From: Candidatus Peregrinibacteria bacterium RIFOXYA2_FULL_41_18
GTDB taxonomy: Bacteria > Patescibacteriota > Gracilibacteria > UBA1369 > UBA12470
Assembly (NCBI GenBank): GCA_001788795.1
Contig: MFXH01000012.1
Location: forward strand, 502-64,501
Direction: 5' to 3'
DNA length: 64,000 bases
A program made the position numbers and the translations under genes. Every line of letters starts with the position of its first letter. Position 1 is the first letter of the stretch. The notes under the pieces are model-generated. The model worked only from the letters and a program-made list of their open reading frames with translations, was not told where the DNA came from and ran no database searches. This document shows, piece by piece, positions 49,957 through 51,425 of this stretch.

Positions 49957-51162
49957 TCAAATCGGAAACCTCTCTGCAATATAATCGATATCCTTATCTC
50001 CTCGTCCAGATAGATTCACAATGATTATTTCCGATTCTTTTAGGGCTGGAGCGAGTTTGATTGCGTGAGCAATTGCATGAGAGCTTTCGAGTGCTGGAAT
50101 GATTCCTTCTATTCGAGATAGGCGTTTGAACGCATCTATGGCTTCTACATCGTTAATAGTTTCATATTGCACTCTTCCAAGTTCTTTCAGATCCGGATGG
50201 ATTGGGCCGACTCCCGGATAATCCAAGCCCGAGGCTATTGAATGAACCGATAATGGCTCTCCTTTATCGTTCTGTAACAGATATGTGAACATTCCGTGCA
50301 GGGTTCCCGGTTTTCCGAGAGTCATTGTGGCTGCGTGTTCTCCGGGTTTGAAGCTTTTGCCTGCTGGTTCGACTCCTATCATTTTTACTTCCGGATCGTT
50401 TAGGAATTCGTTAAATAATCCGATTGCGTTTGAGCCGCCTCCGACACAAGCTATCAAATAATCCGGCAATCTTCCTTCATGTTCCATGATCTGTTTTTTT
50501 GCTTCTCTTCCGACTACAGATTGGAAATCTCTTACCATCATAGGGTAGGGGTGTGGTCCGACTACTGATCCGATGCCGAAGAATGTCGTTTTGTAATCTT
50601 GCATATATGCTCCAAAAGCGCTGTCTACAGCGTCTTTCAAGCATCTTCCGCCTGATTCTACCGAAACGACTTTTGCGCCTAGCAGCTTCATTCTAATTAC
50701 ATTCGGGTGTTGCTTGGCGATGTCGATTGCGCCCATGTGGATTTCGCATTCGAGTCCCATTAATGCTGCGGCTGTTGCAAGTGCCACTCCATGTTGGCCG
50801 GCTCCCGTTTCGGCGAGAAGTTTTTTCTTGCCCATGCGTTTTGCGAGGAGGGCTTCGCCGAGAGTGTGATTTATTTTGTGAGCGCCTGTGTGATTCAGGT
50901 CTTCGCGTTTCAGATATACTTTTGCGCCTCCCAAGATTTTTGTCAGATTTTTTGCGAAATAAAGAGGGGAGGGGCGGCCTACGAAATTTTTTAATAAATC
51001 CTCATATTCTTTTTGGAACGAAGGGTCGTTTTTTGCATCTTCGTAAGCCTTCAAGACTTCATCCATTGCAGGTTTCAATTGAGGTGGGATGAATTGTCCG
51101 CCGTATTGTCCGAAGAATCCGTTATTATCGGGATAATTTGTGTGAAAATTTTGCTTAGTCAT
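49957..51162 (-). CDS. trpB: tryptophan synthase beta chain (orphan)
   Basis: PLP enzyme that joins indole and serine to make tryptophan. 401 residues, TrpB1-type length, with [24 protein letters not shown] (PLP lysine in HK), [24 protein letters not shown], the phosphate loop [26 protein letters not shown] and [10 protein letters not shown]. No trpA or other trp gene is adjacent, so it probably uses free indole, or a distant partner. A leader peptide with tandem Trp codons and alternative hairpins lie about 100-210 bp upstream, indicating control by Trp supply. Confidence 0.96.
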
Positions 51163-51257
51163 GTTAGTTGTTTTTAATAAAATAGTTTGGTAAAGGTTGC
51201 GATTTTTTGTGTCGCCAATATTCCGCGGATCTGTTTTTGAAAATAAATTTTTTCATA

Positions 51258-51335
51258 AAAAAATAGCCCTTTTAACGGGCGTTGATAGTTCTGAACATTT
51301 TTACACGAAATCAACTACCCGTTTAGAGGGGTAGT
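51258..51335 (-). promoter_or_regulatory. probable Trp attenuator (alternative hairpins and U-run)
   Basis: On the minus strand ACTACCC (51335-51329) pairs with GGGTAGT (51320-51314). AACGGGTAGTTGAT (51323-51310) can instead pair with ATCAACGCCCGTT (51286-51274), and GCCC (51280-51277) with GGGC (51269-51266) followed by UAUUUUUUU. The three pairings exclude one another as 1:2, 2:3 and 3:4 structures of an attenuator. The terminator stem is only 4 bp of G-C, so it is weak as drawn. It lies about 100 bp before trpB. Confidence 0.7.
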
Positions 51336-51371
51336 CCACCAGATTGCGATTTGTAAGTTTCGTGTTTTCAC
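51315..51371 (-). CDS. trpL: trp leader peptide
   Basis: An 18-codon frame from GTG 51371, MKTRNLQIAIWWTTPLNG then TAG. Trp codons 11 and 12 (51341-51336) lie directly before the first hairpin strand, and the stop codon is inside its second strand, the arrangement that couples ribosome stalling to RNA folding in trpL. A CACGAAA/TTTCGTG stem (51364-51358 with 51310-51304) can enclose the region. It is not similar in sequence to enteric trpL apart from the WW. The start falls where the upstream promoter should begin transcription. Confidence 0.7.
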   Translation of the reverse strand: MKTRNLQIAIWWTTPLNG

Positions 51372-51377
51372 GGGCTT

Positions 51378-51406
51378 ATATTAGCATAACAGTCACAGAA
51401 AGCGAA
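51378..51406 (-). promoter_or_regulatory. promoter of the trp leader
   Basis: On the minus strand TTCGCT (51406-51401), 17-bp spacer, extended -10 TGCTAATAT with hexamer at 51383-51378. Start expected near 51371, the leader's GTG. It overlaps one arm of a 15-bp inverted repeat. Confidence 0.55.
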
Positions 51407-51425
51407 GCGATTCTGTGACTGTTAT
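51386..51425. repeat. 15-bp perfect inverted repeat
   Basis: ATAACAGTCACAGAA (51386-51400) and TTCTGTGACTGTTAT (51411-51425) flank a 10-base AGCGAAGCGA loop. No T-run follows on either strand. It lies between dus and the trp leader and covers the spacer of the leader promoter, so it could be an operator or a dus 3' hairpin. Confidence 0.8.

What the first reader, a model, noticed from the sequence alone, without database searches (positions are those of the whole stretch)
51258..51406. A trp-leader attenuator controlling an orphan trpB
Reading the minus strand upstream of trpB shows a GTG-started 18-codon frame with two adjacent Trp codons, followed directly by overlapping hairpins. One pairing (ACTACCC with GGGTAGT) includes the leader's stop codon. 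A longer alternative (AACGGGTAGTTGAT with ATCAACGCCCGTT) would sequester the strand of a U-tailed terminator hairpin. This is the classic logic of ribosome-mediated attenuation, known from trp operons of Proteobacteria, here before a single trpB in a CPR-like genome. The leader seems to begin at the transcription start itself. I am not aware of a described case in this group.
Basis: partly seen in the sequence, partly recalled or inferred. Interest (0 to 1): 0.85.

Follow-up and report, generated by a model that had tools for sequence, protein, structure and literature searches.

The report
Tryptophan-sensing attenuator before CPR trpB
An ultra-small (CPR/Patescibacteria) bacterium appears to switch its only tryptophan-making gene on and off with a classic ribosome-read "leader peptide" attenuator; the same device is conserved before this gene in some twenty related genomes, and the genome carries a second, cysteine-sensing one.

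Summary
Minus strand 51371-51315 encodes VKTRNLQIAIWWTTPLNG*, with 1:2, 2:3 and 3:4 pairings and a U-tailed terminator before an orphan trpB (no trpA or trpC). In a folding simulation, terminator probability is 0.07 with the ribosome stalled on WW and 1.00 at the stop codon. The same trpB clade in other CPR lineages (Falkowbacteria, Magasanikbacteria, Komeilibacteria, Nomurabacteria, Paceibacterota) carries the leader: 24 loci folded, mean 0.16 versus 0.97, dinucleotide shuffles 0.89. Arm sequences differ between loci, but each arm 2 fits its own arm 3 (0/20,000 permutations reach the observed mean). A -10 box lies exactly 6 nt before the leader start in 14 of 16 loci, with no Shine-Dalgarno, so the leader is probably leaderless. 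Two further points emerged. A second conserved micro-ORF lies between attenuator and trpB. A poly-Cys attenuator precedes a serine-kinase-like/cysteine-synthase pair in the same genome and recurs in CPR relatives. I found no published CPR attenuator in the open-access library searched. Nothing has been tested experimentally.

The parts
51378..51383 (-). -10 box TAATAT (extended, TGC before it), 6 nt before the leader start
   Evidence: same 6-nt spacing in 14 of 16 loci, mean match to TATAAT 4.7/6 at gap 6 versus 3.0 or less elsewhere
51315..51371 (-). trpL leader ORF, GTG start, VKTRNLQIAIWWTTPLNG*, probably leaderless
51336..51341 (-). tandem Trp codons TGGTGG (sensor)
51329..51335 (-). arm 1 (ACTACCC), pairs with arm 2
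51310..51323 (-). arm 2 (AACGGGTAGTTGAT), includes the leader stop; pairs with arm 1 or arm 3
51274..51286 (-). arm 3 (ATCAACGCCCGTT), antiterminator 3' side, overlaps the terminator 5' stem
51257..51280 (-). intrinsic terminator GCCC-N7-GGGC plus U-run
51164..51256 (-). second micro-ORF (ORF2), [30 protein letters not shown], stop 1 nt before trpB ATG; conserved peptide in 14 CPR loci
49957..51162 (-). orphan trpB (tryptophan synthase beta, 401 aa)
   Evidence: TIGR00263 579 bits, cut-off 392; active-site motifs [27 protein letters not shown] readable in the translation
51386..51425 (.). 15-bp perfect inverted repeat just upstream of and abutting the promoter; role unknown (dusB end hairpin or operator); not TrpR-like
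   Evidence: unique in the genome

Best explanation
A ribosome-mediated transcription attenuator. RNA polymerase starts at or next to the GTG, and a ribosome loads on the leaderless mRNA and translates the 18-codon leader. With enough charged tRNA-Trp the ribosome reaches the stop codon and covers arm 2; arm 3 then pairs with arm 4 and transcription ends at the U-run. When Trp is short the ribosome stalls on the WW codons, arm 2 is free to pair with arm 3, the terminator cannot form, and trpB is transcribed so that indole plus serine can be turned into Trp. Shown here: the ORF, the pairings, their conservation and compensating changes, the position-dependent switch by folding, the promoter spacing, and that trpB is orphan. 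Inferred: translation, termination, the response to Trp, and indole salvage as the physiological role.
For: Sequence. WW leader in CPR relatives. P(terminator) stalled versus at stop: 0.07 versus 1.00 in the window, 0.16 versus 0.97 on average over 24 loci. Dinucleotide shuffles of the spacer give 0.89; combined Fisher p 7e-21, loci not independent. The flip occurs between 18 and 20 nt after the first base of W1, at 15, 25 and 37 C. Own arm 2:arm 3 duplexes average -16.1 versus -9.3 kcal/mol for cross pairs, 0 of 20,000 permutations. Fixed promoter spacing without Shine-Dalgarno. Natural control L054: WW has become WL and its switch is degraded (0.40), while its sister L037 keeps WW and switches fully. 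A matching Cys attenuator in the same genome.
Against: The window's terminator is short (4 bp, -6.3 kcal/mol). No RNA-seq, ribosome profiling or reporter data. In the no-ribosome state the fold disfavours the terminator for many loci, including the window (0.10), so efficient leader translation is required. In L033 the predicted switch is nearly absent (0.94 at stop versus 0.92 stalled), and in L122 weak (0.78 stalled). Folding is thermodynamic, not kinetic, and the ribosome footprint is assumed.
Confidence: 0.9

Rival explanations
1. The attenuator is ancestral and works in relatives, but is decayed or weak in this genome: the 4-bp terminator leaks and trpB is more or less constitutive.
For: Weakest terminator of 24 loci; GTG rather than ATG start; one relative, L054, shows such decay.
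Against: All three pairings, WW and the exact promoter spacing are kept; the folding switch is among the sharpest (0.07 to 1.00).
Confidence: 0.1
2. The RNA is another kind of cis-regulator (T-box, ligand riboswitch, protein-bound leader) and the WW codons are incidental.
For: Nothing positive; many Trp genes elsewhere use T-boxes or TRAP (general knowledge).
Against: No Rfam match in the window or in 14 relatives beyond tRNA, RNase P and one SAM riboswitch far from trpB. WW and its distance to arm 2 are what is conserved, not primary sequence.
Confidence: 0.02
3. Two-layer control: after read-through, the conserved ORF2 peptide (W near codon 14, ending in or near W-R) is a second sensor or a translational coupler for trpB. 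This would add to the attenuator, not replace it.
For: Peptide-level conservation: codon position differences 0.36/0.34/0.49 in the core versus about 0.67 after it, 0.16/0.15/0.41 in one subgroup. The FKxHCTExW motif occurs in 2 of 380 CPR genomes, exactly those in that sample already shown to carry this ORF2 next to trpB. The window's ORF2 stop lies 1 nt before trpB; in L033 ORF2 runs in frame into trpB. ORF2 was not found in trpR-linked loci.
Against: No common RNA structure after ORF2 was seen by eye; the gap from ORF2 to trpB varies from 1 to 220 nt; no functional data.
Confidence: 0.35
4. Chance: a WW mini-ORF next to an ordinary dusB or intergenic terminator.
For: Short ORFs with WW do occur (25 outside large ORFs in the genome).
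Against: Conservation, arm covariation and shuffles; unique combination in the genome.
Confidence: 0.01

Closest known systems
E. coli trpL attenuator (trp operon, WW leader plus TrpR operator)
   Same: Tandem Trp codons, 1:2/2:3/3:4 logic, U-tailed terminator. A CPR relative (L040) even has an E. coli-like TrpR operator (ACTAG-N4-CTAGT) across its promoter and a trpR-like gene upstream.
   Different: Controls one orphan trpB, not a biosynthetic operon; leader probably leaderless; no trp-linked TrpR in the window genome; sequence not matched by the Rfam library.
Leaderless trpL of Sinorhizobium meliloti trpLE(G) (PMC7298713) and the trp attenuators of Corynebacterium and Streptomyces (PMC1262725)
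   Same: Attenuator with Trp-codon leader; in S. meliloti the mRNA starts with the leader's ATG, which matches the -10 spacing found here.
   Different: Different phylum and gene; here a second conserved micro-ORF follows the terminator.
Chlamydia trachomatis trpRBA intergenic region (PMC6504234, PMC7755916)
   Same: Reduced-genome bacterium making Trp by salvage. CPR relatives L003, L005, L038, L048, L064 and L075 have trpR-leader-trpB order.
   Different: The chlamydial TrpL is doubtful (59 aa, no tandem Trp codons; C. trachomatis is stated not to possess TrpL attenuation, PMC7755916). Most of the CPR leaders have tandem Trp codons and conserved switches. Window: no trpR beside trpB, no trpA.
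Cysteine-codon leader peptides of Mycobacterium and Propionibacterium cys operons (PMC1262725)
   Same: Leader with a run of Cys codons before cysteine genes, as in the second attenuator found here.
   Different: PMC1262725 reports no conserved terminator hairpins for the mycobacterial ones; the CPR cases have U-tailed hairpins.

Membership tests
Ribosome-mediated trp transcription attenuator | Short leader ORF with tandem Trp codons just upstream of a Trp gene | tested here: met
Ribosome-mediated trp transcription attenuator | Intrinsic terminator between leader and structural gene | tested here: met
   weak (4 bp) in the window
Ribosome-mediated trp transcription attenuator | Antiterminator that excludes the terminator and is favoured when the ribosome stalls at Trp | tested here: met
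   (folding only)
Ribosome-mediated trp transcription attenuator | Leader is translated and read-through responds to charged tRNA-Trp | not testable with these tools
   needs RNA-seq, ribosome profiling or a reporter
Rfam Trp_leader family (gamma-proteobacterial type) | Match to the Rfam covariance model | tested here: not met
   no match at gathering threshold, nor in the permissive search of the window leader
Leaderless mRNA leader | Transcription start at or within a few nt of the start codon, no Shine-Dalgarno | tested here: inconclusive
   -10 exactly 6 nt before the start codon in 14 of 16 loci, no SD-like 4-mer; start site not mapped
TrpR-repressed trp promoter | Trp-linked TrpR and operator | tested here: not met
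   the genome's only TrpR-family protein is a YerC/YecD type at the end of the his operon; trpR-like genes linked in several relatives
T-box or riboswitch | Match to a known family | tested here: not met
Orphan trpB (salvage) | No trpA/trpC in the genome | tested here: met
   genome 99% complete

The most novel reading that the evidence does not exclude
Ribosome-mediated attenuation is a general amino-acid control strategy of CPR bacteria (Trp and Cys at least), and in the trpB case a second, peptide-conserved micro-ORF placed after the terminator forms a new second sensing or coupling layer not described for any trp system I know of.
Probability: 0.35. Interest if true: 0.82.

Novelty: new variant of a known kind. 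Interest (0 to 1): 0.66.

Why it matters
CPR bacteria are treated as gene-poor auxotrophs, and I found no report of amino-acid-responsive attenuation in them. A conserved attenuator on an orphan trpB says that these cells measure their own Trp charging and decide when to salvage indole. It implies transcription-translation coupling and leaderless initiation in the group. It could also serve as a native amino-acid-responsive expression switch for organisms where, according to PMC11665869, inducible systems still need development. The trpB phylogeny suggests the sensor travels with the gene between CPR lineages, and a TrpB clade of Actinomycetota sits among the CPR ones.

Tried and rejected
Rfam search of the window and of 14 relatives: no family at the leader. 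TrpA hit in the own genome: rejected, it lies in a HisA/HisF-like frame of the his operon. Chorismate-binding hit: a PabB-PabC-like frame next to PabA, not TrpE. TrpR control of the window promoter: rejected, the only TrpR-family protein is YerC-like in the his operon. MAFFT alignment for pair counting was too poor across variable spacers; replaced by arm-swapping permutations. A W-x-x-W mini-ORF in L133 (MIRLWTRWI) lies at the end of a small ORF before a long, pnp-like ORF and was rejected. My first upstream scan had minus-strand loci unoriented; corrected.

Full report
WHAT IS THERE. On the minus strand an extended -10 box (TGC-TAATAT, 51383-51378) is followed after 6 nt by GTG (51371) and the frame VKTRNLQIAIWWTTPLNG* (stop 51317-51315). 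The Trp-Trp codons are at 51341-51336. Arm 1 ACTACCC and arm 2 GGGTAGT form a hairpin that includes the stop codon. Arm 2 extended (51323-51310) pairs with arm 3 (51286-51274) in 13 bp with one bulge (-17.3 kcal/mol). Arm 3 overlaps the 5' stem of a short terminator (51280-51266, 4 bp, -6.3 kcal/mol) with a U-run (51265-51257). trpB starts at 51162 and scores 579 bits against TIGR00263.

NOT CHANCE. In the whole genome (fetched) only 25 mini-ORFs with TGGTGG lie outside long ORFs, and by inspection of that list only this one is followed by a GC hairpin plus U-run. A scan of CPR relatives found the WW leader directly before trpB of the same protein clade (about 58-79% identity) in L001, L005, L032, L033, L034, L035, L037, L038, L039, L040, L042, L043, L044, L046, L048, L064, L075, L119, L120, L122 and L123. 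Degenerate forms are in L003, L004, L054, L115 and L116. CPR trpB genes of the other type (50-56% identity) lack it, with one chance-like exception.

THE SWITCH. For 24 loci I computed the probability of the terminator stem when the RNA is exposed from just past a ribosome on the second Trp codon, and when the ribosome sits at the stop. Window: 0.07 versus 1.00. Mean: 0.16 versus 0.97. With the spacer dinucleotide-shuffled, the stalled value is 0.89 on average; individual loci have 0 to 13 of 200 shuffles as low, except L054 (39 of 200), whose second Trp codon is lost. The window flips between 18 and 20 nt after the first base of W1 at 15, 25 and 37 C, and the 24-locus mean rises at the same place. 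Arm sequences differ between loci (CGGG/CCCG, GTGGGT/ACCCAC, GGCGGT/ACCGCC, GATAATG/CATTATC), yet arm 2 fits its own arm 3: mean -16.1 versus -9.3 kcal/mol for swapped partners, 0 of 20,000 permutations reach the observed mean. Loci are related, so these p-values are not independent tests.

START OF THE RNA. In 14 of 16 loci without an adjacent overlapping trpR stop, a hexamer matching TATAAT in at least 4 positions lies exactly 6 nt before the leader start codon, commonly with TTGACA-like -35 boxes 16-18 nt upstream, and none has a Shine-Dalgarno-like tetramer. This supports leaderless transcripts and supports GTG as the window's true start. In L003, L005, L064 and L075 the leader ATG instead overlaps the stop of an upstream trpR-like gene, so there the leader is probably read by translational coupling.

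CONTEXT. The window genome (99% complete, 1.24 Mb) has no IGPS. The TrpA hit is a HisA/HisF-like frame inside a complete his operon, and the chorismate-binding hit a PabB-PabC-like frame. So TrpB can only condense indole with serine, which I infer is salvage. Its only TrpR-family protein is YerC-like at the end of the his operon. In relatives, trpS follows trpB (L038, L120; a trpS-like frame two genes on in L048) or precedes trpR-leader-trpB (L040), which strengthens the Trp theme. The TrpB tree puts the window with Parcubacteria, Falkowbacteria and Paceibacterota sequences and not with the TrpB of its own family members (L021, L029), and it holds an Actinomycetota group inside the CPR part. 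I infer horizontal spread of gene and leader together. Two Leucobacter loci in that group have WWT leaders.

SECOND MICRO-ORF. Between terminator and trpB the window carries [30 protein letters not shown] (51256-51164). Homologous peptides (consensus M-x(2-6)-F-x-F-K-x-H/R-C/A-T-E-x-W-R) occur in 14 CPR loci. Differences concentrate at third codon positions (0.36/0.34/0.49; 0.16/0.15/0.41 in the CTE subgroup), while the next 30 nt are unconstrained (about 0.67). The motif of that subgroup was found in 2 of 380 CPR genomes, the two in that sample already shown to carry this ORF2 beside trpB. ORF2 was not seen in trpR-linked loci. Its role is unknown; coupling to trpB or a second sensor are the options I would test.

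SECOND ATTENUATOR IN THE SAME GENOME. A scan for codon-run leaders found MKTTNQIALACCCPCNHCRAY* with a -14.6 kcal/mol terminator upstream of a SerK/SbnI/ParB-like protein and a cysteine synthase. Stalled at Cys versus at stop gives 0.20 versus 0.98. Poly-Cys leaders with terminators precede cysteine synthase in several other CPR relatives (L198, L199, L202, L203, L212, L213), though the folded switch is clear in some (L202, L212, L213) and partial in others. This makes attenuation in CPR a pattern and not a single case.

COMPARISON. It works like, and by every testable feature is, a ribosome-mediated trp attenuator. It is new in host group and target, and in the added ORF2. Literature searches of the open-access library for CPR or Patescibacteria with attenuation, leader peptide or riboswitch terms found no prior report; subscription papers were not searched. 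The closest described systems are E. coli trpL, the leaderless S. meliloti trpL (PMC7298713), actinobacterial trp and cys leaders (PMC1262725) and the disputed chlamydial trpRBA leader (PMC6504234, PMC7755916).

LIMITS. No transcript or translation data; the ribosome footprint is assumed; folding is thermodynamic; the window's terminator is short; L033 and L122 switch poorly in the model.

Noticed in passing
51256-51164 (minus): Second conserved micro-ORF (ORF2) between terminator and trpB; peptide-level conservation in 14 CPR loci, function unknown.
   Followed up: partly
L186:5823 (minus; G000:C18, about 45423): Poly-Cys leader MKTTNQIALACCCPCNHCRAY* plus strong terminator before SerK/ParB-like and cysteine synthase genes; similar Cys leaders in L198, L199, L202, L203, L212, L213.
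   Followed up: partly
L163:5639-10734 and upstream (G000:C8): Complete his operon ending in a YerC/YecD TrpR-family gene, a possible histidine regulator in CPR.
   Followed up: partly
L040, about 300 nt upstream of trpB: E. coli-like TrpR operator ACTAGcataCTAGT overlapping the promoter of trpL-trpB, gene order trpS-trpR-trpL-trpB.
   Followed up: partly
L114, just upstream of trpB: Divergent TrpR-like gene and a palindrome (CATGCTAtcacaaTAGCATG) before trpB, no attenuator: possibly TrpR-only control.
   Followed up: no
51386-51425: Perfect 15-bp inverted repeat abutting the trpL promoter, unique in the genome; dusB end hairpin or operator.
   Followed up: partly
L041, L045, L052, L053, L058, L059, L061, L062, L083, L086, L093: Actinomycetota trpB genes nest inside the CPR TrpB clade, suggesting gene transfer; Leucobacter L083 and L086 carry WWT leaders.
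   Followed up: partly
L037:6772-6883: SAM riboswitch upstream of a metK-like gene in a CPR-type contig.
   Followed up: no
L123 just upstream of trpB: Leader ending ...FTWWA* whose WW codons lie inside the terminator stem itself, a possible minimal attenuator where the stalled ribosome blocks the hairpin directly.
   Followed up: no
L033 upstream of trpB: ORF2 is fused in frame to trpB.
   Followed up: no
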